From Caldisericia bacterium (lineage in GTDB: Bacteria; Caldisericota; Caldisericia; B22-G15): a DNA stretch of 64,000 nucleotides. Location: contig JASEFN010000002.1 in the NCBI GenBank assembly GCA_030018355.1, forward strand, positions 234,699-298,698, read 5' to 3'. Shown in pieces: positions 7,377 through 39,237 of this stretch; within the stretch, counting starts at the first letter, position 1, and every line of letters begins with the position of its first letter. A program made the translations under genes and the position numbers. A model generated the notes under the pieces. The model saw nothing but the letters and a program-made list of their open reading frames with translations, had not been told where the DNA came from and did not search any database.

Positions 7377-8150
7377 TTATATTAAACCCTTTTTTGAAAG
7401 ATATTCATTTAAAATTTTTCTTATTTCATCAGAAGATAACGGACCAAAAAATGGTTCTTCTCCATCAACATAGACATTTGTTGAACCATATTTCAAAATT
7501 TCATCTTTTGTTAGAGGAACATACTCTACTAATTCAATTTTATCTCCAAACTCTTTAATAGTATCTTTTAATTTTTCATACCAAACTATAGTAAAAGGAC
7601 ACCTTAAATTCTTTACAATTTCCACAACAACTTTATTCTCTTTTTTTAAATGATTAAATGTTGGTTTTAATAATTTTGGTGTTTCAATTTCTTTATACTT
7701 TTTAATTAAAGATTTAAAAGGATGATTTAATCCACTAAGTTTAATCTCCTCAAAATCAAATTTTTTAAAAAAAGAGATAGGCATCCACTCTTCACCATCA
7801 ATTCCAATTGTCATAACTCCGCTTCTATCAATTGTGTTTTTAATAACTTCTTCAATTAGTGCTTTCCCAACTCCTCTTTTTCGAAAATTTGGTAACACCC
7901 ATATACATGGCATAAAATATAGATCTTTTCCTGATATTAAATTTATACCCTCTTCAATTGGCCAAAGTTCAACTCTTCCAATTGGGATATCCAATTCATA
8001 GGCAATAAAACCCTTCCAGCCAGATTTAAATCTAAATTCTCTCCATAAATTAGCAATAAATTTTATTGCATTTATATATTTATCCTCACTTGGACAACAT
8101 GGAACAAATAAATCAATTATATTTTCTTCTGTTGCCATTTTTATTTCCAT
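7377..8150 (-). CDS. GNAT acetyltransferase with C-terminal YoaP-like domain
   Basis: 257 residues. The first 150 form a GNAT domain: the acetyl-CoA pyrophosphate loop is RKRGVGKALIEEV, preceded by the strand CIWVLPNFRKRG. The rest (LRCPFTIVWYEKLKD, STNVYVDGEEPFFGPLSSDEIRKIL) resembles the thioredoxin-like YoaP domain found fused to GNATs. The LRCPF Cys sits where a redox Cys would be, but there is no CxxC. Acetyl acceptor unknown. GAGGAAATT upstream supports the start. Divergent from efp. Confidence 0.8.
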   Translation of the reverse strand: MEIKMATEENIIDLFVPCCPSEDKYINAIKFIANLWREFRFKSGWKGFIAYELDIPIGRVELWPIEEGINLISGKDLYFMPCIWVLPNFRKRGVGKALIEEVIKNTIDRSGVMTIGIDGEEWMPISFFKKFDFEEIKLSGLNHPFKSLIKKYKEIETPKLLKPTFNHLKKENKVVVEIVKNLRCPFTIVWYEKLKDTIKEFGDKIELVEYVPLTKDEILKYGSTNVYVDGEEPFFGPLSSDEIRKILNEYLSKKGLI

Positions 8151-8189
8151 AATTTCCTCTTTTAAATGATAACATAATTTTGTATTACT

Positions 8190-8198
8190 TGATATAAT
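8190..8198 (+). promoter_or_regulatory. Extended -10 promoter element of efp
   Basis: TGATATAAT is an extended -10 (TGnTATAAT) about 48 bases before the efp ATG. The same nine bases occur upstream of porG (29282-29290) and of the DUF438 gene (22743-22751). No good -35 is visible at any of the three, as expected for extended -10 promoters. Confidence 0.6.
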
Positions 8199-8246
8199 AG
8201 AAATTAATTGATAAAATCTAAATAGTTGATTCTTTAGGAGGAGATA

Positions 8247-8816
8247 ATGATTGATGTTAATGATTTGAGACCTGGAGTTACTTTTGAACTTGATGGTGAA
8301 GTTTGGATTGTTATAAGTTTTTTACATGTCAAACCTGGAAAAGGCTCTGCTTTTGTAAGGACAAAAATTAGAAATATAGAAACAGGAAATGTAATTGAAA
8401 GAACTTTCAGAGCAGGGGAAAAAGTGAAAGAGGCATATGTAGAAAGAAAAGAGTTTCAATATATGTATAATGATGGAACTATGTATTATTTCATGGATAA
8501 CAAAACATATGAGCAGATTGAACTTCCTGAAGAATTTATTGGTGATGAAAAATATTATTTAAAAGAAGGAATGAGTATTCAAGTTTTGTATTATAAAGAT
8601 AGAGCAATAGGTATTGAACTTCCTAATTATGTTGATCTTGAAGTTGTTGAGACAGAGCCAGGGTTTAAAGGAGATACAGCACAAGGAGGAAGTAAACCAG
8701 CAGTTTTAGAAACTGGACTCAAGATTCAAGTTCCACTTTTTATAGAAAAAGGTGAAATAATTAGAGTTGATACAAGAACCGGAGAATATCTTGAAAGGGT
8801 AGGTAAAAAAGAATGA
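8247..8816 (+). CDS. efp: Translation elongation factor P
   Basis: 189 residues, normal length. EF-P relieves ribosome stalling at polyproline. The tip loop [14 protein letters not shown] holds Lys32, the residue modified in many bacteria. The second and third OB domains end in [17 protein letters not shown] as usual. A strong TAGGAGGAG site precedes the ATG. First gene of a long rightward operon (efp, asp23-like, nusB, acyP, ispA, dxs, tlyA, nadK, rsmG), with an ATGA overlap into the next gene. No modification enzyme for Lys32 is seen nearby. Confidence 0.97.
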
Positions 8817-9151
8817 GAGAAAATTTAGTTATGAGTGATTATGCAATTGAACATCTCATAGAAGGTGTAATAAGAGAATTTAGAGAAGTAGAGGGTATTG
8901 GTTCAGATTTTGCAAAAGAGTTAATTGACCTATTTGATGGAGATGAAGCAAAAAAGGGAATTAAAATAAAAAGAGAAAATGAGTCTTTAACTATTGATAT
9001 TCTTTTAAGAGTTTTTTATCTTGTTGATCTTATAGAACTCTCCAAAAATTTAAGAAAAAGAATTAAAGAAACTTTAGAAAAATTTACTCCTTATAAAATT
9101 AAAGAAATAAATTTTTATTATATAGATGTTAAAGATAGAAATGAGGGTTAG
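8813..9151 (+). CDS. Asp23/Gls24 family protein
   Basis: 112 residues, beginning with the typical [23 protein letters not shown] central beta region ([43 protein letters not shown]) and a short C-terminal strand follow, as in Asp23/Gls24 (DUF322) proteins. Such genes often sit between efp and nusB, as here, which supports the call. Family roles include envelope stress and membrane association; the exact function is unknown. It overlaps efp by four bases and nusB by eleven. Confidence 0.8.
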
Positions 9152-9560
9152 GGAAATAGCAAGAGAGAAGGCCCTTCAACTTTTGTATCAAAGGGATATA
9201 ACTTCTTTTGATATAGATAAAATAATTGAAAAGTTTGAATTTAATGATACCCCAGAAGAAAGCATAATTTATGCAGTTGAACTTTTTAAAGGAGTTGTTG
9301 AAAATTTAGATTATATTGATAAAGTTATTCAGGAGTTTTTGCAAAATTGGGAATGGGAAAGAGTTTTAACAATAGATAAAAATATTTTAAGAATTGGGAC
9401 CTTTGAACTTTTATTTAAAAAAGATGTTCCAACTGGAGCGGTTATTGATCAAGCAGTAAGAATTGCAAAAAAATACGGAGGTTATGACGATTCTTATAAA
9501 TTTATAAATGGAATTTTAGGTAGAATTGCAGAGAGGTATAGAGGTGAAAAAGAGGCTTGA
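9141..9560 (+). CDS. nusB: Transcription antitermination protein NusB
   Basis: 139 residues from ATG 9141 ([17 protein letters not shown]), which matches the family N terminus; an ATG five codons upstream at 9126 is also possible. All-alpha RNA-binding protein that with NusE/S10 binds boxA in rRNA leaders. The conserved NKILRIGTFELLF-like block (here DKNILRIGTFELLFKKDVP) and the C-terminal FINGILGRIAE are present. It overlaps its neighbours at both ends. Confidence 0.93.
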   Translation: MRVREIAREKALQLLYQRDITSFDIDKIIEKFEFNDTPEESIIYAVELFKGVVENLDYIDKVIQEFLQNWEWERVLTIDKNILRIGTFELLFKKDVPTGAVIDQAVRIAKKYGGYDDSYKFINGILGRIAERYRGEKEA

Positions 9561-29372: not shown

Positions 29373-29936
29373 GTGAGTGATCTTTTTGAAGTAAGGATTC
29401 ATGGTAGGGCTGGTCAGGGAGCAAAAACAGGGGGCCAAATTTTAGCATATGCTGCATTTTTTGAAGGTAAAACAGTTCAAGCATTCCCTGAATACGGCTC
29501 AGAAAGAAGGGGTGCACCAACAGTTGCTTACACAAGAATTTCTACAAAAGAGATTAGAAGTCATGAACCAATTCTTGAACCAGATGCTGTTATTGTTCTT
29601 GATGAGACTTATATTTACACTCTTCCAGTTACAAAAGGGTTAAAAGAGAATGGCGTTTTAATCATCAACACAACAAAGACAAGTGATGAGGTAAGAAAAG
29701 TAACAAAATTTAATGGGAAAATTTTTACGGTTGATGCAACTGGAATTTCTCTTTCAACTGTAGGCAGAGATGCTCCTAACATTCCTACACTTGGTGCTCT
29801 TGTTAAAGTTACAGATATTCTCTCACTTGATTCACTTAAAAAGGCAATTGAAGAAATGTTTTTAAAGAAACTTGGTGAAAATCTTACAAAGAGAAACATT
29901 GATGCTCTTATGAAAGGTTATGAGGAGGTAAAATAA
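29373..29936 (+). CDS. porG: Pyruvate:ferredoxin oxidoreductase gamma subunit
   Basis: 187 residues from GTG. FEVRIHGRAGQGAKTGGQILAYAA and FPEYGSERRGAP are the diagnostic gamma-subunit (catalytic domain III) blocks. The four-subunit enzyme oxidises pyruvate with CoA to acetyl-CoA, CO2 and reduced ferredoxin. Order gamma-delta-alpha-beta matches Thermotoga and Pyrococcus. The stop overlaps porD by one base. Pyruvate rather than another 2-oxoacid is the likely substrate but is not proved by sequence alone. Confidence 0.93.
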   Translation: MSDLFEVRIHGRAGQGAKTGGQILAYAAFFEGKTVQAFPEYGSERRGAPTVAYTRISTKEIRSHEPILEPDAVIVLDETYIYTLPVTKGLKENGVLIINTTKTSDEVRKVTKFNGKIFTVDATGISLSTVGRDAPNIPTLGALVKVTDILSLDSLKKAIEEMFLKKLGENLTKRNIDALMKGYEEVK

Positions 29937-30289
29937 TGAATAAAGTTAATAAAGTAAGAATAGGTGCAACTTGGAAAGAACTTCCTATTGGCGGAACACT
30001 TCCTGCTGCCACATCTCTTGATTATAAAACTGGTGCATGGCGTAGTTTTGTTCCAAAATTTAACCCAAATGAGTGTACACATTGTATGATTTGTGTTCAC
30101 TATTGCCCTGTTATGGCTATTCCTACAGAAATTAATGAAAATGGAGTTAAGGGTTTTAAGGATAGAATTTATAAAGGAGTTGTAAGACTTGAGACAAATT
30201 TAGATTATTGTACAGGATGCGGAATATGTGCTGAAGAGTGTCCAACTGGGGCTATTAAGATGGAAAGAGAAACATGGGAGGTGAAATAA
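29936..30289 (+). CDS. porD: Pyruvate:ferredoxin oxidoreductase delta subunit (2[4Fe-4S])
   Basis: 117 residues. Two ferredoxin motifs, CTHCMICVHYCPVMAIP and CTGCGICAEECPTGAI, each bind a 4Fe-4S cluster and carry electrons from the TPP site to free ferredoxin. The N-terminal ATWKELPIGGTLPAATSLDYKTGAW is typical of delta subunits. TAATG overlaps on both sides point to coupled translation. Confidence 0.95.
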   Translation: MNKVNKVRIGATWKELPIGGTLPAATSLDYKTGAWRSFVPKFNPNECTHCMICVHYCPVMAIPTEINENGVKGFKDRIYKGVVRLETNLDYCTGCGICAEECPTGAIKMERETWEVK

Positions 30290-31470
30290 TGGGAGTAACT
30301 GTAAAATCAAAAAAGATACCTTTAACTGGTGCAGAGGCGGTTGCAGAAGCAATGAGACAGATAAAACCAGATGTAGTTGCAGCATATCCAATAACTCCCC
30401 AAACACCAATTGTTGAAATTTTCTCAAAATTTGCTGCAGATGGAATAGTCGATACTGAAGTTGTAACTCCTGAATCTGAACACTCTGCAATTTCAATTGT
30501 TACTGCAGCATCAGCAGCAGGGGCAAGAGCGATGTCTGCTTCAGCATCTCAAGGACTTGCTTTAATGGTTGAAGTTTTGCCTGCAACAAGTGGACTTAGA
30601 CTTCCAGTTGTTATGGCCATTGCAAATAGGGCTCTTTCTGCACCAATAAACATACATTGTGATCATTCAGATATGATGGCAGTAAGAGATTTAGGATGGA
30701 TACAGATTTTTTCTGAAAATGCCCAAGAAGCATATGAAAATATGTTTCTTGCAGTAAAACTTTCAGAGCATCCAGATGTTTTACTTCCAGTAATGGTGGG
30801 TCTTGATGGATTTATAATAAGCCATGGAGTTGAGGTTGTTGAAATATATGATGATGAGATAATGCACTCTTTTGTCGGTGATAGAAAGCCACATCTCTCT
30901 CTTTTTGATTTTGAAAATCCAATAACAATCGGACCTCTTGAGTTGCCAGATTTTTATTTTGAAACAAAAAGGCAAGAGCAAGAAGCAATGAAAAATGCAC
31001 TCAAAATTTATATTGAAATTGGAAAAGAACTTTCAAAAATTACTGGAAAAGAATACAAATATTTTGAGAGTTATAAACTTGAAGATGCAGAAGTTGCTAT
31101 TATTGTGATGGGTTCTACTGCTGGAACTGCAAAAGATGCTGTTGATGAATTAAGAAATGAAGGAAAGAAAGTTGGATTACTTAAACCAAAACTTTTTAGA
31201 CCATTTCCATATGATGAAATAAGAGATGCACTTAAACATCTTAAAGGAATTGGTGTTTTAGATAGAGCATACTCTTTTGGTGCATATGCTCCCCTATATA
31301 GTGATATAAGAAATGCTCTTTATGATCTTGAAAAAAGAATACCAGTGCAAAGTTATATTTATGGACTTGGTGGAAGAGATATATTTAAGTATCAGATAAA
31401 GAGTGTATTTAATGAACTTCTTGACGGTAAATTTTCTAAAGAAGAGAAATGTATTGGTTTAAGAGAGTGA
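30289..31470 (+). CDS. porA: Pyruvate:ferredoxin oxidoreductase alpha subunit
   Basis: 393 residues from ATG 30289, which overlaps the porD stop and follows GGGAGGTG; a TTG-type start five codons earlier is unnecessary. Diagnostic blocks: AAYPITPQTPIVE, VVTPESEHSAISIVTAASAAGARAMSASASQG and the Rossmann-like C-terminal region GSTAGTAKDAVDELR. Contains the CoA/TPP domains I and II. Normal length for four-subunit enzymes. Confidence 0.96.
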   Translation: MGVTVKSKKIPLTGAEAVAEAMRQIKPDVVAAYPITPQTPIVEIFSKFAADGIVDTEVVTPESEHSAISIVTAASAAGARAMSASASQGLALMVEVLPATSGLRLPVVMAIANRALSAPINIHCDHSDMMAVRDLGWIQIFSENAQEAYENMFLAVKLSEHPDVLLPVMVGLDGFIISHGVEVVEIYDDEIMHSFVGDRKPHLSLFDFENPITIGPLELPDFYFETKRQEQEAMKNALKIYIEIGKELSKITGKEYKYFESYKLEDAEVAIIVMGSTAGTAKDAVDELRNEGKKVGLLKPKLFRPFPYDEIRDALKHLKGIGVLDRAYSFGAYAPLYSDIRNALYDLEKRIPVQSYIYGLGGRDIFKYQIKSVFNELLDGKFSKEEKCIGLRE

Positions 31471-31480
31471 GGTGAAAGAT

Positions 31481-32443
31481 ATGGAAATAAAATCTATAAG
31501 AGATTTAGCAGAACTTCAAACCAAAACTGGTTTGAAGTTTGTGTCTGGTCATAGAATGTGTGCGGGTTGTGGAATCGCAACAATTTTAAGAACCGTACTT
31601 TCTGCATCTACAAAACCAGTAGTTGTTGTTAATGCAACTGGTTGTCTTGAAGTTGTATCAACAATATATCCTTATACTGCATGGAATACTCCATGGCTTC
31701 ATGTTACTTTTGTAAATGCAGCATCAAGTGCTTCTGGTGTTGAAACTGCATATAGGGCTTTAAAGAAAAAAGGATTAATAAAAGAGGAAGTCAATATTGT
31801 TGCAATTGGTGGTGATGGTGGAACATACGATATTGGAATTCAAGCACTTTCTGGTGCACTTGAAAGGTGGCATAACTTTCTATATATATGCTATAACAAT
31901 GAAGGTTATATGAATACAGGACATCAAAGAAGTGGTGCAACTCCATTTGGTGCATCAACTACAACTCAACCTGCAGGTAAGGTATCTATTGGAAAAATTC
32001 AGTGGAGGAAAGATTTAGTAAAAATTGTTCAAGGACATAATATTCCATATGTTGCACAATCAAATGTCTATAATACAATTGATATGTTCAAAAAAGCAAG
32101 TAAAGCGTTTGAAATAGAAGGACCAAAATTTTTAAATATTCTTATGCCTTGCACAACAAACTGGGGATTTCCAGAAAGTATGACCATGAAAATTAGTAGA
32201 TTAGCCACAGAAACAAATTATTGGCCACTATTTGAAATTGAAAATGGAATCTTAACTGTAAATTATAAACCAAAAGAGAGAAAACCAATTGAGGAATTCT
32301 TAAAACTTCAAGGAAGATTCAAGCACCTCTTTACTCAAGAAAATAGACATGTAATTGAGGAGATGCAAAAAAGGATTGATGAAGATTTCGAAAATCTTTT
32401 GAAACTTGAAAAAGTAACCCACGAAGAAGGAGTAAGAATATAA
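31481..32443 (+). CDS. porB: Pyruvate:ferredoxin oxidoreductase beta subunit (TPP-binding)
   Basis: 320 residues from ATG 31481 (GAGGTGAAAG upstream); a GTG at 31472 overlaps that site. Cluster-binding cysteines are in HRMCAGCGIATIL and NATGCLEV, with another in MPCTTNWGF. The TPP motif is GDGGTYDIGIQALSGALERWHNFLYICYNNEGYMNTG. It closes the operon and is followed by a strong hairpin. Confidence 0.96.
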   Translation: MEIKSIRDLAELQTKTGLKFVSGHRMCAGCGIATILRTVLSASTKPVVVVNATGCLEVVSTIYPYTAWNTPWLHVTFVNAASSASGVETAYRALKKKGLIKEEVNIVAIGGDGGTYDIGIQALSGALERWHNFLYICYNNEGYMNTGHQRSGATPFGASTTTQPAGKVSIGKIQWRKDLVKIVQGHNIPYVAQSNVYNTIDMFKKASKAFEIEGPKFLNILMPCTTNWGFPESMTMKISRLATETNYWPLFEIENGILTVNYKPKERKPIEEFLKLQGRFKHLFTQENRHVIEEMQKRIDEDFENLLKLEKVTHEEGVRI

Positions 32444-32499: not shown

Positions 32500-33597
32500 A
32501 TGAAAAAAATTCCACTTCACTCTTTTCATGAAAAACATAATGCTAAATTTATTGAGTTTGCAGGTTTTATAATGCCTCTTTATTATACATCAATTAAAGA
32601 TGAACATATGTCTGTAAGAGAGAGAGTCGGGGTTTTTGATGTATCACATATGGGAGAAATTAGAATTAAAGGAAAAAATGCTAAAAAATTTGCAGATTAC
32701 ATTTTAACAAATGACATATTAAACACAAATTATAAAGATGTAAAATATACTGTTATGTTGAATGAAAATGGTGGAATTGTTGATGATCTTTTTTCTTATA
32801 CTTTTTCAGATGAAGAGATTCTTTTAGTTGTAAATGCTGCGAATATTGAAAAAGATTTTTATCATTTAAAAAAATATTTATGGAGTGGTCTTGAATTGAT
32901 AAATGAGTCAGAAAATACAATAGAATTTGCAGTTCAAGGGCCAAAAGCAGAAGATTTTCTTCAAAATTTTACTTCATATGATTTAAAAGATATAAAATAT
33001 TTTAAATTTGACTTTATTGAAATTTTTGGTGAAAAATTACTAATTTCACGAACTGGTTATACTGGAGAAGATGGATTTGAAATATATATGAATAAAGAGA
33101 GCGGAGAAAAAGCGTTAACTCAAATTTTAGAGAAAGGTAAAGATTATGATATAAGATTATGTGGTCTTGGTGCAAGAGATACTTTGAGATTTGAGGTATG
33201 TTATTGGCTTTATGGAAATGATATTGATGAAAGTATAAACCCAATTGAGTCTGGTCAAAAATTTTTAGTTAATATGAACAAAGAGAATTTTATTGGTAAA
33301 AACGCATTAGAGAAAATTTTGAAGGAGGGTATTAAAAGAAAATTTGTTGGTATTGAAGTCAATGGTGGTATTGCAAGACATTCATATAAAATTTTTGATA
33401 GAAATTTAAATGAAATCGGTTTTATAACAAGTGGTAATTTTTCTTTTGTTTTAAATAAATCACTTGCATTGGGTTATATAAATCTTCCTCATGGTGAAAT
33501 AGGTGAGGAGATAATTATTTCAGATGGAAAAAGAAACCTTTATGGTAAAATAATTAAGAAACCATTTATAAAGCCGAGAGTAAAAAAGGAGGGTTAA
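32500..33597 (+). CDS. gcvT: Aminomethyltransferase (glycine cleavage T protein)
   Basis: 365 residues. It transfers the methylene group from aminomethyl-lipoyl H protein to tetrahydrofolate, releasing ammonia. FAGFIMPLYYTSIKDEHMSVRERVGVFDVSHMGEIRIKG, GIVDDLFSYTF, RTGYTGEDGFEIY and GLGARDTLRFE are all conserved. First gene of gcvT-gcvH-gcvPA-gcvPB plus lipoylation genes. AAAGGAAAG acts as binding site right after the upstream terminator. Confidence 0.96.
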   Translation: MKKIPLHSFHEKHNAKFIEFAGFIMPLYYTSIKDEHMSVRERVGVFDVSHMGEIRIKGKNAKKFADYILTNDILNTNYKDVKYTVMLNENGGIVDDLFSYTFSDEEILLVVNAANIEKDFYHLKKYLWSGLELINESENTIEFAVQGPKAEDFLQNFTSYDLKDIKYFKFDFIEIFGEKLLISRTGYTGEDGFEIYMNKESGEKALTQILEKGKDYDIRLCGLGARDTLRFEVCYWLYGNDIDESINPIESGQKFLVNMNKENFIGKNALEKILKEGIKRKFVGIEVNGGIARHSYKIFDRNLNEIGFITSGNFSFVLNKSLALGYINLPHGEIGEEIIISDGKRNLYGKIIKKPFIKPRVKKEG

Positions 33598-33599
33598 AG

Positions 33600-33983
33600 A
33601 TGAGTAAAGTGTTAGAAAATTTATATTACCAAGCAACAGATGAATGGTTAAAAGTAGAGGGGGATATTGGAATCGTTGGAATTACAGATTATGCTCAAGA
33701 TAAACTTGGTGATATAGTATATTTAGAAGAAGCAAGTTTGGGAAGAAAAGTAAAAAAGGGAGAAGCAATTATTTCAATTGAATCAGTAAAGGCTGCAGCA
33801 GAAATTCATTCTCCTATTTCAGGAGAAATAATTGAAGTAAATAAAGAAGCAGTAAATAATCCACAAATTATAAATGAAGATCCATATGGAAAGGGGTGGT
33901 TATTTAAAATTAAAATCGAAAATATGGATGAACTTAAAGATTTAATGGATGCAAAAGGATATTCTGAGTATAGGAAAGAATAA
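33600..33983 (+). CDS. gcvH: Glycine cleavage H protein
   Basis: 127 residues. Carries the lipoyl arm that shuttles the aminomethyl group. ATDEWLKVEGDIGIVGITDYAQDKLGDIVYLE opens the domain and the lipoylated lysine is K64 in ISIESVKAAAEIHSP. Normal length. It starts two bases after gcvT and is immediately followed by gcvPA. Its lipoylation is probably carried out by the three genes at the end of the same operon. Confidence 0.97.
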   Translation: MSKVLENLYYQATDEWLKVEGDIGIVGITDYAQDKLGDIVYLEEASLGRKVKKGEAIISIESVKAAAEIHSPISGEIIEVNKEAVNNPQIINEDPYGKGWLFKIKIENMDELKDLMDAKGYSEYRKE

Positions 33984-35315
33984 ATGAAATTTATACCTCA
34001 TACTGAGAAAGATATTGAAGAGATGCTTCATGAAATTGGAATATCCTCAATTGATGAACTTTTTGAGGATATTCCAGAAGAAATAAAATTAAAAAGAGAC
34101 CTTAATTTACCTCCACCTCTTAATGAATTAGAACTAAAAAATGAGATTGATGAGATTTTATCATTAAATTTAAAATTAAAAAGAATATTTCTTGGTGGAG
34201 GAGCATATTTTCATTTTATACCAGCAACTGTAAATTATGTTTTATCTCGAGGTGAATTTTATACATCTTACACTCCATATCAACCAGAACTCTCTCAAGG
34301 AATTCTTCAAGCATTATTTGAGTTTCAATCAATTCTTTCAGATTTAACTCATGCAGATGTTACAAATAGTTCAATGTATGATGGTGCAACATCCCTTGTT
34401 GAAGCAATTTTTATGGCTGAAAGAATAAAAAAGAGAGGCAAAGTTCTAGTTTCCAGAAGTTTAAATCCAGAATATAATGAAGTTTTAAAAACCTACCTTC
34501 CTCCAAGAGAAATAACCCTTGATTACATTGATTTTAATGAAAATGGTGAGGTTCCACTTGAAAAGTTAAAGGAAAAGGTAAAAGAAGGATACTCATCTTT
34601 TGTTATTCAAAGTCCAAACTATTTTGGAATTATTGAAAACTTAAAAGAAATTGGAAAAATTTTAAAAGAGAGCGACACACTTTTTATATTAACTATTACT
34701 GAGGGAATATCACTGGGCATCTTAAAGCCTCCTTTTGATTTTGGTGTTGATATTCTTGCAATGGAAGGTCAATCTTTTGGTATACCTCTATCTTTTGGTG
34801 GTCCATATCTGGGAATTTTACAGACCAAAAAAGAATACATTAGAGAAATTCCAGGAAGAATTATTGGAGAAACAAAAGATAGAAATGGAAAAAGAGCATA
34901 TGTTATGACTTTAAGGGCAAGAGAACAAGATATAAAAAGAGATAAAGCAACCTCAAATATTTGTACTAATAACTCTTTAAATGCGCTTGCTGCTTTAGTT
35001 TATCTTTCAACACTTGGGCCATCTGGTTTTAAAAAGGTTGCTGAGATAAATTATAAAAAGGCACATTATCTAGCAAAAAGACTTATTGATGAAGGTTTTG
35101 AACTTAAATTCAAAAATTTGAAATTCTTTAATGAGTTTGTTTTAAAACTTAATATAGAACCTATTAGATTAAAAGAAAAACTCTCACTTGTCGGAATAGA
35201 AGGAGGGATTCCTCTAAGATATTTTGGTTTAGATGATTCATATCTTTTTACTGTGACTGAAATGAATTCAAGAGAAGATATTGAACTTCTTGTTTGTGCT
35301 TTAAAGGAGGGGTAA
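33984..35315 (+). CDS. gcvPA: Glycine dehydrogenase (decarboxylating) subunit 1
   Basis: 443 residues, the N-terminal half of the P protein in organisms with a split enzyme. FIPHTEKDIEEMLHEIGISSIDELFEDIP is the classic start, then FLGGGAYFHFIPA, TSYTPYQPELSQGILQALFEFQS and NSSMYDGATSLVEA. This subunit lacks the PLP lysine, which is in gcvPB. The split is normal for many bacteria and not a frameshift: each half has its own start and ribosome binding site. Confidence 0.96.
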   Translation: MKFIPHTEKDIEEMLHEIGISSIDELFEDIPEEIKLKRDLNLPPPLNELELKNEIDEILSLNLKLKRIFLGGGAYFHFIPATVNYVLSRGEFYTSYTPYQPELSQGILQALFEFQSILSDLTHADVTNSSMYDGATSLVEAIFMAERIKKRGKVLVSRSLNPEYNEVLKTYLPPREITLDYIDFNENGEVPLEKLKEKVKEGYSSFVIQSPNYFGIIENLKEIGKILKESDTLFILTITEGISLGILKPPFDFGVDILAMEGQSFGIPLSFGGPYLGILQTKKEYIREIPGRIIGETKDRNGKRAYVMTLRAREQDIKRDKATSNICTNNSLNALAALVYLSTLGPSGFKKVAEINYKKAHYLAKRLIDEGFELKFKNLKFFNEFVLKLNIEPIRLKEKLSLVGIEGGIPLRYFGLDDSYLFTVTEMNSREDIELLVCALKEG

Positions 35316-36736
35316 TGAAAACCTTAAAAGAACTTTCAAAAAAAGGAAGTAATAAATTTGAGATAGAAGACGATTTAGCCTTTTTTGAAGTTGAAAAATT
35401 AAATGAAGATTATTTAAGAGAGGAGGTTGAAATACCCGATGTTTCTGAAGTTACTTTGATAAGGCACTTCATAAATCTCTCAAAATTAAATTATGGTGTT
35501 GACTTAAATTTTTACCCACTTGGTTCCTGTACAATGAAATATAATCCAAAGATAAATGAAGAAGTTGCAAAAAAGGAAGATTTCCTTTATCTTCATCCCC
35601 TTTTATCAATTGAATATGTTCAAGGTACTCTTAAGATTTTATGGGAATTACAAGAATTTTTAAAAGAAATTACTGGAATGGATGCTTTTACACTTCAACC
35701 AGCAGCAGGTGCTCATGGTGAGTATACAGGTCTTAGAATTATGTGGGAGTACTTTAAAGATAAAGGAGAGAGAAGAAAAAAGGTAATTCTTCCAGATTCT
35801 GCTCACGGAACAAATCCAGCATCTTCTTCTATGTTAGGGCTTGAAGTTGTTGAGATTGAATCGAAAGATGGAATGGTGGATCCAGAAAAATTAAAAGAAG
35901 TTGTCGACGAAAATACTTTTGCTTTAATGTTAACAAATCCAAACACTCTTGGATTTTTTGAAAAAGATATTTTAAAGATAAGTGAAATATTAAAAAGCAA
36001 GGGTGCTCTTCTTTATTATGATGGTGCAAATTTAAATGGTTTTATTGGTATCGCTCGACCAGGAGATATGGGATTTGATTGTGTACATTTAAATTTGCAT
36101 AAAACTTTCTCCACTCCTCATGGTGGTGGAGGACCTGGAAGTGGTCCAGTTGGAGTTAAAGAGTTTTTGGCAAAATATTTACCATTTCCAGTTATTGAAA
36201 AGAATGAAGATGATTTCTTTTATTTTTCAAAACCTGAAAGAACTATTGGAAAGGTAAGAAGTTTCTTTGGAAATTTCACTGTTTTGTTAAAAGGCTATTT
36301 ATATATTAGAGAACTTGGAAGTGAAGGATTGAAGGAAGTAGCAAAACTTTCTGTTTTAAATGCAAATTATATAAAGGAGAAACTTAAAAAATATTATCCA
36401 TCACCATTTGATAGAGTTGTTAAACATGAGTGTGTTCTTTCTGGAAAAATATACAAGGAGTATGGAGTAAAGACTCTTGATATTGCTAAAAGATTAATGG
36501 ATTATGGTTTTCATCCCCCAACAATTTATTTTCCTCATATTGTTGATGAAGCACTTATGATTGAACCAACCGAAACAGAAAGTAAAGAGACATTAGATGA
36601 ATTTATAGAAGCAATGATTAAAATAAGTGAAGAAATAAAGACAAACCCTACTCTAGTTAAAAATGCCCCTCATACAACATACATATCAAGACCAGATGAA
36701 GTGAGGGCAGTAAAGGAACTCAAGGTTAAGTGGTAG
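35315..36736 (+). CDS. gcvPB: Glycine dehydrogenase (decarboxylating) subunit 2
   Basis: 473 residues from ATG 35315, which overlaps the gcvPA stop (TAATG) and follows GGAGGGG. FYPLGSCTMKYNPK, QPAAGAHGEYTGL, DSAHGTNPASSSMLG and the PLP-lysine segment HLNLHKTFSTPHGGGGPGSGPVG are present. It decarboxylates glycine and loads the remaining group on GcvH. The L protein (dihydrolipoamide dehydrogenase) is not encoded in this window. Confidence 0.97.
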   Translation: MKTLKELSKKGSNKFEIEDDLAFFEVEKLNEDYLREEVEIPDVSEVTLIRHFINLSKLNYGVDLNFYPLGSCTMKYNPKINEEVAKKEDFLYLHPLLSIEYVQGTLKILWELQEFLKEITGMDAFTLQPAAGAHGEYTGLRIMWEYFKDKGERRKKVILPDSAHGTNPASSSMLGLEVVEIESKDGMVDPEKLKEVVDENTFALMLTNPNTLGFFEKDILKISEILKSKGALLYYDGANLNGFIGIARPGDMGFDCVHLNLHKTFSTPHGGGGPGSGPVGVKEFLAKYLPFPVIEKNEDDFFYFSKPERTIGKVRSFFGNFTVLLKGYLYIRELGSEGLKEVAKLSVLNANYIKEKLKKYYPSPFDRVVKHECVLSGKIYKEYGVKTLDIAKRLMDYGFHPPTIYFPHIVDEALMIEPTETESKETLDEFIEAMIKISEEIKTNPTLVKNAPHTTYISRPDEVRAVKELKVKW

Positions 36737-37542
36737 AAGAGAGAATTAAATTTTTTTATCCAATAAAAACTTTACCTGTTTCTTTAACAGGGCCTTTTTG
36801 CTCTTTAAATTGTGCTCATTGCAACGCACATTATCTTAAAGGCATGAAAACAAAAGAAGAGTCTTTAAAATATCTTGATAGCGACGAATATACTTCATTT
36901 TTAATTTCTGGTGGTTTTGATGAAAATGGTAAATTAGATATATTTTCAAACATAGATTACATTAAAAGAGTAAAAGAGAGTGGAAAAAAGATAGTTCTTC
37001 ACCCAGGTTTTATATCAAAAGAAGAAATTGACCTATTAAAAGGTTATGTGGATGTAATATCTTTTGATTTTATCTATGATGATGAAACAATAAAAGAGAT
37101 TTATCATCTTGATTTTAAAAAAGAAGATTTTAGAAACCAGTACTTACTTTTAAGAAGAAATATTAAAACAGTACCACATATAATTGTTGGCCTTTATAAA
37201 GGTAAAATTAAAGGAGAGTATGAAGCGATTGATGTTCTGGCAGAATTAAAGCCAAATTTAATTATTTTTCTTGTGCTAATTCCAACAAAAGGCACAAATT
37301 TTGAAAATATTTCTATACCAGATGTTAGTGAAATAAAAGAACTATTTATTAGATCAAAAAGAAAATTAAGATTAACTAAATTTTATCTTGGTTGCATGGT
37401 TCCAAAAGGTGAAATAAAAGATGAAATTGAGATTGCTGCTTTTGAAAGTGGTTTTATAGGTTTTGTTAATCCACAAGATAAACTTAAAAATTTAATAAAA
37501 GATCCAGAAATTTATTATGAATGTGATGCCCTCTACTATTAG
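36730..37542 (+). CDS. Radical SAM protein, candidate half of a LipS1/LipS2-type lipoyl synthase
   Basis: 270 residues from a GTG that overlaps the gcvPB stop. The radical SAM cluster motif is FCSLNCAHCNAHYL (C24, C28, C31), followed by FLISGGFDENG and a biotin-synthase-like barrel (VLHPGFIS, PHIIVGLYKGK). C-terminal cysteine at GCMVPKGE. It is not LipA: the LipA N-terminal CxxxxCxxxxxC and the RSSY end are absent. Two radical SAM proteins annotated as biotin-synthase-like form the LipS1/LipS2 lipoyl synthase of Thermococcus and some bacteria. Location between gcvPB, a second radical SAM gene and a lipoate-type transferase supports that role (inference). Confidence 0.72.
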   Translation: MVEERIKFFYPIKTLPVSLTGPFCSLNCAHCNAHYLKGMKTKEESLKYLDSDEYTSFLISGGFDENGKLDIFSNIDYIKRVKESGKKIVLHPGFISKEEIDLLKGYVDVISFDFIYDDETIKEIYHLDFKKEDFRNQYLLLRRNIKTVPHIIVGLYKGKIKGEYEAIDVLAELKPNLIIFLVLIPTKGTNFENISIPDVSEIKELFIRSKRKLRLTKFYLGCMVPKGEIKDEIEIAAFESGFIGFVNPQDKLKNLIKDPEIYYECDALYY

Positions 37543-38473
37543 AGTTTCTATTGCAAGTGCTTCAATTTTAGGTTTTAAAAATTTAAAATATGATTTTGAA
37601 ATAAAAACAATTTACCTTCTTGTAAAAGGAAAATGTTTAAGAGACTGTAAATATTGCACTCAAGCAAAAAGTTCAAAAGCAAATGAAAAATTTTTATCTA
37701 GAGTTATCTGGCCAGAATATGATTTAAATGAAGTGATAAACAGAATTTTAGAAAAAAAGGAATTTATTGAAAGAATTTGCCTGCAAACAGTAAATAATAG
37801 ATATACAAAGGATGTAATTTTCGAAATTCTGAAAAATTTAGGAAAAGAAATAAAAATTTCAATTTCTATAAACACAAATAGCCTCTCTTTTTTAAAGGAG
37901 ATATTCAATTTAAATGCTGATAGAGTTGGATTTCCTATCGATGTTGCAAATGAAAAACTATATAAGAAGTTAAGGGGAGGAGATTTTAATAAAAAATTAA
38001 AATTTATTTTAAAAGCAGGCCACTATTTTGAAAATAAAATTTCAACTCATATTATTGTTGGACTTGGAGAAAGCGATAAAGATATTTTATCACTATATAA
38101 AACTTTTATTGACAATAAAATAACAGTTGCAATTTTTTCTTTTACTCCAGTTGAAGGAACTTCATTAGAAAATAGACCTCCTCCATCTTTAGTTAGATAT
38201 AGAAAAATCCAAATTGCGACAAAATTAATAGAGAATGGGTATGATAATTCTTGCTTTGAATTTGATGAAGATGGTAATATAAAAAGATTACCCGATATTT
38301 CTTTTGAATTATTTAAAAAATTAAATCCATTTACAACCAGGGGATGTCCGTATTGTACAAGACCATTTTATAATGAGAGGCCAAAGGGAGATCTATACAA
38401 TTACCCATTTCAATTAAGCGAAGAAGATTTTGAGAAAGAGTTTGAATTTTTAAAGAAAAACTCTATTATATGA
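37517..38473 (+). CDS. Second radical SAM protein, candidate partner in a LipS1/LipS2-type lipoyl synthase
   Basis: 318 residues (ATG 37517; ATG 37526 also possible), overlapping the previous gene by 26 bases. Radical SAM motif GKCLRDCKYCTQAKSS (C40, C44, C47). SISINTNSL, GHYFENKISTHIIVGLGE and FTPVEGTSLENRPPPS are biotin-synthase-like. Near the C terminus TTRGCPYCTRPFYNERP adds C277 and C280, which could bind the auxiliary Fe-S cluster consumed as sulfur source. BioB would carry other conserved residues and bio genes nearby; none are seen. Predicted to insert sulfur into octanoyl-GcvH together with its neighbour. Confidence 0.72.
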   Translation: MNVMPSTIRVSIASASILGFKNLKYDFEIKTIYLLVKGKCLRDCKYCTQAKSSKANEKFLSRVIWPEYDLNEVINRILEKKEFIERICLQTVNNRYTKDVIFEILKNLGKEIKISISINTNSLSFLKEIFNLNADRVGFPIDVANEKLYKKLRGGDFNKKLKFILKAGHYFENKISTHIIVGLGESDKDILSLYKTFIDNKITVAIFSFTPVEGTSLENRPPPSLVRYRKIQIATKLIENGYDNSCFEFDEDGNIKRLPDISFELFKKLNPFTTRGCPYCTRPFYNERPKGDLYNYPFQLSEEDFEKEFEFLKKNSII

Positions 38474-39237
38474 GTTTTAGACTAAAGATTTTAAAGTTTA
38501 AAAAATTAAACCCATATTTAAATATGGCAATTGATGAAGCAAATCTTATTTTTGGTGATAGAGATGAAATTATTTTAAGATTTTTTGGATGGATTCCAGC
38601 ATCTGTTTCAATTGGGACATTTCAAAAAATTCAAGAAATAAATATTGAATATTTAAAAGAGAATAATATTCCTTTTGTTAGAAGACCAACAGGTGGAAAA
38701 GGGGTTTATCACGAACATGAATTGACATATTCGATTATTATTCCACATAAACATACACTTTTTGAACTTGACACAATTGAATCGTATAAGGAGATTTCAA
38801 AAATTTTTATCAACTCGTTAAAAGAATTTGGAATTAATGCAGAGTTAACCAAAAAAAGTGGTAATGAAAAAGGATTTTGTTTTTCATCTCAAAACTATTA
38901 TGAAGTATCAGTTAATGGTAAAAAATTGATTGGTTCAGCACAAAGAAGAAAAAAAGAGGGAATCCTTCAACAGGGTTCAATACCCCTTGAAATAAATTAT
39001 GAAAAAGTAAAGAAGATATTTTATTTGGATGATACAAGTAGTTTTATCTCTTTAAAAGAATTAAATAAAAATGTTGAGATTGAGAAACTACAAGAAGTTT
39101 TAATTAAAAATTTCATAAATTATTTTTCTACTCCTTATGAAATAAAAGAACACTCTAAAGATGAAATTAAAAAATGCGAGGATCTTTTAAATAATAAATA
39201 TTCTTTGGATTCTTGGAATTATAAAGGTATTTATTAA
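38470..39237 (+). CDS. Lipoate/octanoate-protein transferase, LipM-like
   Basis: 255 residues of the LplA/LipB fold: MAIDEANLI, VRRPTGGKGVYHEHELTYSI and GKKLIGSAQRRKKEGILQQGSIPLE, where the KLIGSAQ lysine is the fold's conserved one. C137 in KGFCFSSQNYYEV sits where LipM-type octanoyltransferases have their nucleophilic Cys, favouring transfer from octanoyl-ACP over ATP-dependent lipoate ligation. Together with the two upstream radical SAM genes it would complete lipoylation of GcvH. Overlaps the previous gene by four bases and the convergent dnaB by four. Confidence 0.78.
   Translation: MSFRLKILKFKKLNPYLNMAIDEANLIFGDRDEIILRFFGWIPASVSIGTFQKIQEINIEYLKENNIPFVRRPTGGKGVYHEHELTYSIIIPHKHTLFELDTIESYKEISKIFINSLKEFGINAELTKKSGNEKGFCFSSQNYYEVSVNGKKLIGSAQRRKKEGILQQGSIPLEINYEKVKKIFYLDDTSSFISLKELNKNVEIEKLQEVLIKNFINYFSTPYEIKEHSKDEIKKCEDLLNNKYSLDSWNYKGIY

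What the first reader, a model, noticed from the sequence alone, without database searches (positions are those of the whole stretch)
36730..39237. Lipoylation cassette with a candidate two-component LipS1/LipS2 lipoyl synthase inside a glycine-cleavage operon
Two different radical SAM proteins (CxxxCxxC at C24/C28/C31 and at C40/C44/C47, the second with an extra C-terminal CPYC) and a LipM-like transferase with Cys137 follow gcvT-gcvH-gcvPA-gcvPB with overlapping reading frames. No LipA is present. Known: in Thermococcus two biotin-synthase-like proteins, LipS1 and LipS2, together make lipoyl groups. Inference: this operon encodes the H protein plus its own complete octanoyl transfer and sulfur insertion machinery, so here a bacterial lineage builds lipoate by the archaeal-type route.
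Basis: partly seen in the sequence, partly recalled or inferred. Interest (0 to 1): 0.72.

Follow-up and report, generated by a model that had tools for sequence, protein, structure and literature searches.

The report
LipS1/LipS2 lipoylation cassette, one cysteine lost
A small-genome bacterium of the phylum Caldisericota appears to make its lipoic-acid cofactor with the two-enzyme route first found in archaea, which is already known in bacteria, but one of the two enzymes has lost a cysteine that was essential in the studied archaeal relative, so how it holds its sulfur-donating cluster is an open and testable question.

Summary
Overlapping genes at 36730-39237 encode LipS1 (NF053742, 264.5 bits, cut-off 230), LipS2 (NF053743, 327.9, cut-off 270) and a LipM-type octanoyltransferase with Cys137, directly behind gcvT-H-PA-PB. 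The 1.41 Mb Caldisericota genome shows no LipA or BioB.

The core interpretation, an archaeal-type two-protein lipoyl synthase serving the glycine cleavage H protein in a bacterium, holds at family level, but it is not new: bacterial LipS1/S2, pairing with LipM, and neighbourhoods with GcvH are published (PMC10332631, PMC9585515). The genome also encodes a pyruvate-dehydrogenase-type E2 and a second lipoate-ligase-like protein.

The last is Asp266 here. All four genomes of this family with lipS1 have Asp or Gly there; all 133 other LipS1 compared have Cys, six archaeal paralogues without any auxiliary cysteine set aside. It is the only near-invariant position where the family departs, and the gene is under purifying selection. 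I rate this a new variant of a known enzyme pair. Function is inferred, not shown.

The parts
29373..32443 (+). four POR-type 2-oxoacid:ferredoxin oxidoreductase genes, 56 bases upstream of gcvT; same order conserved in the family
   Evidence: ORFs; order conserved in G001 and G002 and, as far as the fetched stretch reaches, G003; named from sequence by eye, not by an HMM search
32500..33597 (+). gcvT, aminomethyltransferase
   Evidence: TIGR00528 331.7 bits, cut-off 235.85
33600..33983 (+). gcvH, the lipoyl carrier; presumed lipoyl lysine K64 (ESVKA, 33789-33791)
   Evidence: TIGR00527 134.9 bits, cut-off 115.85; lysine position
33984..35315 (+). gcvPA
   Evidence: NF001696 558.6 bits, cut-off 364
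35294..36736 (+). gcvPB (ATG at 35318 behind GGAGGGG is the more likely start)
   Evidence: NF003346 694.1 bits, cut-off 441; start region
36730..37542 (+). lipS1: radical SAM protein for the second (C6) sulfur insertion; CX3CX2C at C24/C28/C31; auxiliary-site residues H150, C222, C265 kept, third cysteine replaced by D266
   Evidence: NF053742 264.5 bits, cut-off 230; cysteines; family alignments
37525..37527 (+). GAT codon of D266 at the place of the third auxiliary cysteine (TkLipS1 C277); it lies inside the 26-base overlap with lipS2 and also creates an in-frame ATG for lipS2 at 37526
37517..38473 (+). lipS2: radical SAM protein for the first (C8) sulfur insertion; CX3CX2C at C40/C44/C47; all three auxiliary cysteines C88, C277, C280 present
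   Evidence: NF053743 327.9 bits, cut-off 270; C88 in 25 of 25 and C277/C280 in 23 of 25 aligned LipS2, the other two gapped there
38470..39237 (+). LipM-type octanoyltransferase; presumed catalytic C137 (38878-38880); motif RRPTGGKGVYHEHELT
   Evidence: PF21948 121.7 bits; Cys and motif shared with LipM-like proteins of the phylum and absent from ligase-like ones

Best explanation
The operon makes a lipoylated glycine-cleavage H protein from scratch. Inferred steps: LipM (acyl-Cys137 intermediate) moves octanoyl from acyl carrier protein to Lys64 of GcvH; LipS2 then uses SAM and its three-cysteine auxiliary cluster to put sulfur on C8; LipS1 puts the second sulfur on C6, giving lipoyl-GcvH, which works with GcvT, GcvPA, GcvPB and a dihydrolipoyl dehydrogenase encoded elsewhere. 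LipS1 is an ortholog whose auxiliary site has shrunk from three cysteines to C222 and C265 plus H150, with Asp or Gly in the third place. I think it still inserts sulfur, the open iron site being held by Asp, solvent, or the thiolate of the 8-mercaptooctanoyl substrate. Shown here: gene identities, order, conservation, the cysteine change, and selection on lipS1. Not shown: any activity.
For: LipS1 and LipS2 pass curated equivalog cut-offs while BioB scores far below its own (47.7 against 225). No LipA in the genome; across 54 Caldisericota genomes LipA over cut-off occurs in six, none of which has a strong LipS1, so the two replace each other. Operon order conserved in four genomes of the family. 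FabF present, so octanoyl-ACP is plausible. Dihydrolipoyl dehydrogenase present. LipM motif and Cys shared with other Caldisericota LipM-like proteins. lipS1 is under purifying selection, dN/dS about 0.1 against G003, like the gcv genes. The LipS1 model is confident (pLDDT 94) and matches HydE and BioB best and also LipA structures. Reaction order and ligands from T. kodakarensis: PMC9585515.
Against: In T. kodakarensis the C277A change left LipS1 activity greatly diminished or undetectable (PMC9585515). The genome has a second lipoate-ligase-like protein that could salvage lipoate. No protein of this family has been assayed. The T. kodakarensis sequence itself was not available here, so residue equivalence rests on spacing and on the family alignment.
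Confidence: 0.78

Rival explanations
1. LipS1 of this lineage is impaired or has changed role, and GcvH is lipoylated mainly by salvage through the second ligase encoded elsewhere in the genome.
For: One of three cysteines found essential in the archaeal enzyme is missing in all four members, with no other cysteine to take its place. A 360-aa lipoate-ligase-like protein with an LplB-like tail is present (TIGR00545 186 bits, below its cut-off of 280). Archaeal LipS1 paralogues without any auxiliary cysteine exist, so the scaffold can be put to other uses.
Against: lipS1 is conserved in the operon in four genomes with dN/dS about 0.1 to 0.2, and every other near-invariant residue, including H150, C222 and C265, is kept. 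The paralogues differ in having lost all three cysteines and in sitting beside another LipS1 in the same genome.
Confidence: 0.12
2. The third gene is an ATP-dependent lipoate/octanoate ligase (LplA type) and not a LipM octanoyltransferase.
For: Best NCBIfam matches are LplA-type models and the best solved-structure match is an LplA catalytic subunit (2ars/3r07); published authors find LipM and LplA hard to tell apart (PMC3904984, PMC10332631).
Against: All ligase models score far below their cut-offs (93 against 280 or 480). The protein has the Cys and the RRPTGG(K/R)xVxH(D/E)xELT motif seen in LipM-like proteins of the phylum, whereas ligase-like paralogues have RRxSGGGAVYHD-type motifs and no such Cys. 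No LplB is encoded beside it.
Confidence: 0.13
3. The two radical SAM proteins are biotin-synthase or HydE-like enzymes for another cofactor.
For: Nearest solved folds of LipS1 are HydE and BioB; LipS2 has weak matches to BioB.
Against: Both pass the LipS1/LipS2 equivalog cut-offs and BioB is far below its own; they are embedded with gcvH and an octanoyl/lipoyl transferase; LipS2 keeps the published auxiliary cysteines.
Confidence: 0.02

Closest known systems
LipS1/LipS2 lipoyl synthase of Thermococcus kodakarensis (TK2109/TK2248; PMC9585515)
   Same: Both protein families, CX3CX2C motifs, LipS2 auxiliary cysteines (C85/C276/C279 there, C88/C277/C280 here), LipS1 His (H159/H150) and two of three LipS1 auxiliary cysteines.
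   Different: Third LipS1 auxiliary cysteine (C277 there) is Asp266 here; the genes are adjacent and lie in a gcv operon, whereas in T. kodakarensis they are over 130 genes apart.
Bacterial sLpl(AB)-LipS1/S2 pathway (PMC10332631)
   Same: Bacterial LipS1/S2 in place of LipA, next to an enzyme that loads the octanoyl group; LipM instead of a ligase is reported there for Schekmanbacteria, Synergistota and Thermotogota.
   Different: The likely target here is GcvH of a glycine-cleavage operon and not LbpA of sulfur oxidation; Caldisericota are not mentioned in that paper's main text.
LipM-LipA pathway of Bacillus subtilis (general knowledge and PMC10332631)
   Same: LipM-type transferase with a catalytic Cys acting on GcvH.
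   Different: Sulfur insertion by LipS1/S2, no LipA; no LipL was identified.
LipS1/LipS2 of Caldisericum-type genomes (G008 and relatives)
   Same: Same phylum, sister clade in the LipS1 tree; overlapping lipS1-lipS2 pair.
   Different: Complete CC motif; in G008 lipS1-lipS2 stand beside a methyltransferase and reverse gyrase, not in a gcv operon.

Membership tests
LipS2 lipoyl synthase | Sequence family (NCBIfam equivalog NF053743) | tested here: met
   327.9 bits, cut-off 270, profile 1-292 of 292
LipS2 lipoyl synthase | CX3CX2C plus three auxiliary cysteines | tested here: met
   C40/C44/C47 and C88/C277/C280; reference set from PMC9585515
LipS2 lipoyl synthase | Sulfur insertion at C8 of the octanoyllysyl substrate | not testable with these tools
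   needs an assay
LipS1 lipoyl synthase | Sequence family (NCBIfam equivalog NF053742) | tested here: met
   264.5 bits, cut-off 230, profile 1-267 of 268; nested among CC-bearing LipS1 in the tree
LipS1 lipoyl synthase | CX3CX2C radical SAM motif and conserved His (H159 in T. kodakarensis) | tested here: met
   C24/C28/C31 and H150, invariant in 143 of 143 aligned
LipS1 lipoyl synthase | Three auxiliary-cluster cysteines (C230, C276, C277 in T. kodakarensis) | tested here: not met
   C222 and C265 present, third position D266; Cys in 133 of 133 other LipS1. It is therefore called a LipS1 ortholog that departs from the type, not a canonical LipS1
LipS1 lipoyl synthase | Sulfur insertion at C6 of the 8-mercaptooctanoyl substrate | not testable with these tools
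   needs an assay
LipM octanoyltransferase | LplA/LipB catalytic domain without ligase accessory domain | tested here: met
   PF21948 121.7 bits over residues 14-215 of 255
LipM octanoyltransferase | Catalytic cysteine and non-ligase motif | tested here: inconclusive
   C137 and RRPTGGKGV motif shared with LipM-like Caldisericota proteins and not with ligase-like ones; B. subtilis LipM itself was not available for alignment
LipA lipoyl synthase | TIGR00510 match in the genome | tested here: not met
   no match in G000
BioB biotin synthase | TIGR00433 above cut-off | tested here: not met
   47.7 bits against 225 for LipS2, no match for LipS1; none among the other radical SAM proteins of the genome

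The most novel reading that the evidence does not exclude
A working LipS1 in this Caldisericota family uses an auxiliary iron-sulfur cluster held by only two cysteines and a histidine, with the last site filled by Asp, solvent or the substrate thiolate, or it holds a smaller cluster as in biotin synthase. That would show that the third cysteine is not a chemical necessity for the C6 sulfur insertion.
Probability: 0.5. Interest if true: 0.6.

Novelty: new variant of a known kind. Interest (0 to 1): 0.42.

Why it matters
As a bacterial LipS1/S2 cassette it extends a published pathway to a gcv operon in Caldisericota, where LipA and LipS1/S2 replace each other between families. The natural loss of one auxiliary-cluster cysteine in an otherwise normal, selected LipS1 is an evolution-made mutant: comparing it with the CC-bearing Caldisericum enzyme would test which ligands the sulfur-donating cluster really needs and whether the substrate thiol itself binds the cluster.

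Tried and rejected
Sequence error or frameshift as cause of the missing cysteine: rejected, because GAT or GGA stands at that codon in four separate genomes. Overlap with the lipS2 start as driver of the change: weak, since G008 and G011 show the same overlapping frame with CC kept; the GAT does create an extra ATG for lipS2 in the window's genus but not in G001. Plasmid search for LipS1 relatives: no match. The one genome-contig scan returned mostly Caldisericota and two archaea, so bacterial LipS1 of other phyla could not be sampled. PDB sequence searches gave no LipS1 relative and only weak BioB/radical SAM matches for LipS2. No lipT or lipL search was made.
Full report
WHAT IS THERE. The first two belong to the known two-protein lipoyl synthase: LipS1 (NF053742, 264.5 bits, cut-off 230) and LipS2 (NF053743, 327.9 bits, cut-off 270). 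BioB reaches only 47.7 of the required 225 bits for LipS2 and is not matched by LipS1. The third has the LplA/LipB catalytic domain (PF21948, 121.7 bits). Four POR-type genes lie directly upstream of gcvT.

THE GENOME. The window lies in a 1.41 Mb genome of 14 contigs, rated 100% complete. The named relatives fetched are Caldisericota, and genomes of the window's own phylum match those records, so the phylum is taken to be Caldisericota. The window's family (coded f1) has LipS1 sister to that of the Caldisericum-type family f2. There is no LipA. Twenty radical SAM matches include LipS1, LipS2 and proteins such as MiaB, MtaB, HemW and AblA, but no BioB. A dihydrolipoyl dehydrogenase (TIGR01350, 538 bits) and FabF are present, so the rest of the glycine-cleavage cycle and an octanoyl-ACP source are plausible. 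Two further facts soften the phrase 'its own complete machinery': a pyruvate-dehydrogenase-type E1-E2 set with a lipoyl domain and a second, 360-aa lipoate-ligase-like protein (TIGR00545, 186 bits, below its cut-off of 280).

DISTRIBUTION. In 54 Caldisericota genomes strong LipS1 matches (150 bits or more) occur in 33, in families f1 to f4. LipA above cut-off occurs in six genomes, of f6 and f7. No genome has both. The gcv linkage is peculiar to f1: among the neighbourhoods fetched, only G000, G001, G002 and G003 have gcv genes beside lipS1. In G008 the pair stands beside a methyltransferase and reverse gyrase. The tree puts f1, f2 and f3 LipS1 together and f4 LipS1 among archaeal sequences, in line with the published picture of repeated transfer (PMC10332631).

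In T. kodakarensis LipS1 the auxiliary cluster needs C230, C276 and C277, with H159 proposed as a further ligand; each cysteine change left activity greatly diminished or undetectable (PMC9585515). The window's LipS1 has C222, C265 and H150 but Asp266 where the second of the two adjacent C-terminal cysteines belongs, and it has no spare cysteine. G002 and G003 also have Asp; G001 has Gly. In an alignment of 143 LipS1-family proteins, from Caldisericota and from the archaeal groups reached through two named loci, 133 have Cys there. The ten exceptions are these four and six archaeal paralogues that have lost all three auxiliary cysteines and sit in genomes with another LipS1-family copy. Of the 19 positions conserved in at least 95% of the 133, position 266 is the only one at which f1 departs. 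LipS2, by contrast, keeps C88, C277 and C280.

IS IT STILL AN ENZYME? lipS1 has dN/dS of about 0.1 against G003 and 0.13 to 0.2 against the others, in the range of the gcv genes (synonymous sites are near saturation for the more distant pairs, so these ratios are rough). The structure model is confident (pLDDT 94, pTM 0.91), and its best matches are HydE and BioB, with LipA further down. I infer that it still does the C6 sulfur insertion with an altered auxiliary site. Because one member has Gly, a side chain at that position cannot be the general answer; solvent or the thiolate of the 8-mercaptooctanoyl substrate are candidates. This is inference. The tools gave no coordinates, so the geometry of the site was not examined.

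THE TRANSFERASE. Published authors find LipM and LplA hard to separate by models (PMC3904984, PMC10332631). Here ligase models score far below their cut-offs, and the protein shares with four LipM-like proteins of the phylum a Cys-Phe followed by a GSAQ(M/R)R segment and the RR(P/S)TGG motif, whereas ligase-like paralogues have RRxSGGGAVYHD-type motifs without that Cys. The likeness of Cys137 to the catalytic Cys of B. subtilis LipM is from memory and was not aligned here.

NOVELTY. The pathway and its bacterial occurrence (PMC10332631), LipM as partner (PMC10332631) and a bacterial neighbourhood with the H protein and a lipoate-ligase-family gene (PMC9585515) are published. No paper in the held library names Caldisericota and lipoate together. 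The cassette alone would be a new member of a known kind; the missing cysteine makes it a new variant. The limit of this claim is sampling: bacterial LipS1 outside Caldisericota could not be reached here.

Noticed in passing
L180, L194, L197, L199, L204, L219 (archaeal genomes G379, G312, G309, G377, G065, G412): LipS1-like paralogues that keep CX3CX2C and the His but have lost all three auxiliary cysteines (A/S, Y/F, G); they form one clade and each sits in a genome with another LipS1-family copy. Possibly radical SAM enzymes of a different function derived from LipS1.
   Followed up: partly
Caldisericota families f1-f4 versus f6-f7: LipA over cut-off and strong LipS1 never occur in the same genome among 54: a clean replacement of lipoyl synthase type inside one phylum.
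   Followed up: partly
L017, L018, L019 (G038, G042, G039; family f4): LipS1 of this family groups with archaeal sequences and apart from f1-f3, which suggests a separate acquisition.
   Followed up: no
window 37517-37542: The lipS1 end and lipS2 start overlap by 26 bases; the GAT codon that replaces the lost cysteine also makes an extra in-frame ATG for lipS2 in the window's genus.
   Followed up: partly
L031:1123-2205 (G000:C1, - strand): Second lipoate-ligase-like protein with the unusual motif RRHNLGGTVYQDLG and an LplB-like tail, next to a protein weakly like the metal-binding MbdU family; target unknown.
   Followed up: no
L060 (G008) 7812-9323: ORF overlapping the end of lipS2 with a weak match to the CRISPR-associated Csx11 model (52 bits, cut-off 249).
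   Followed up: no
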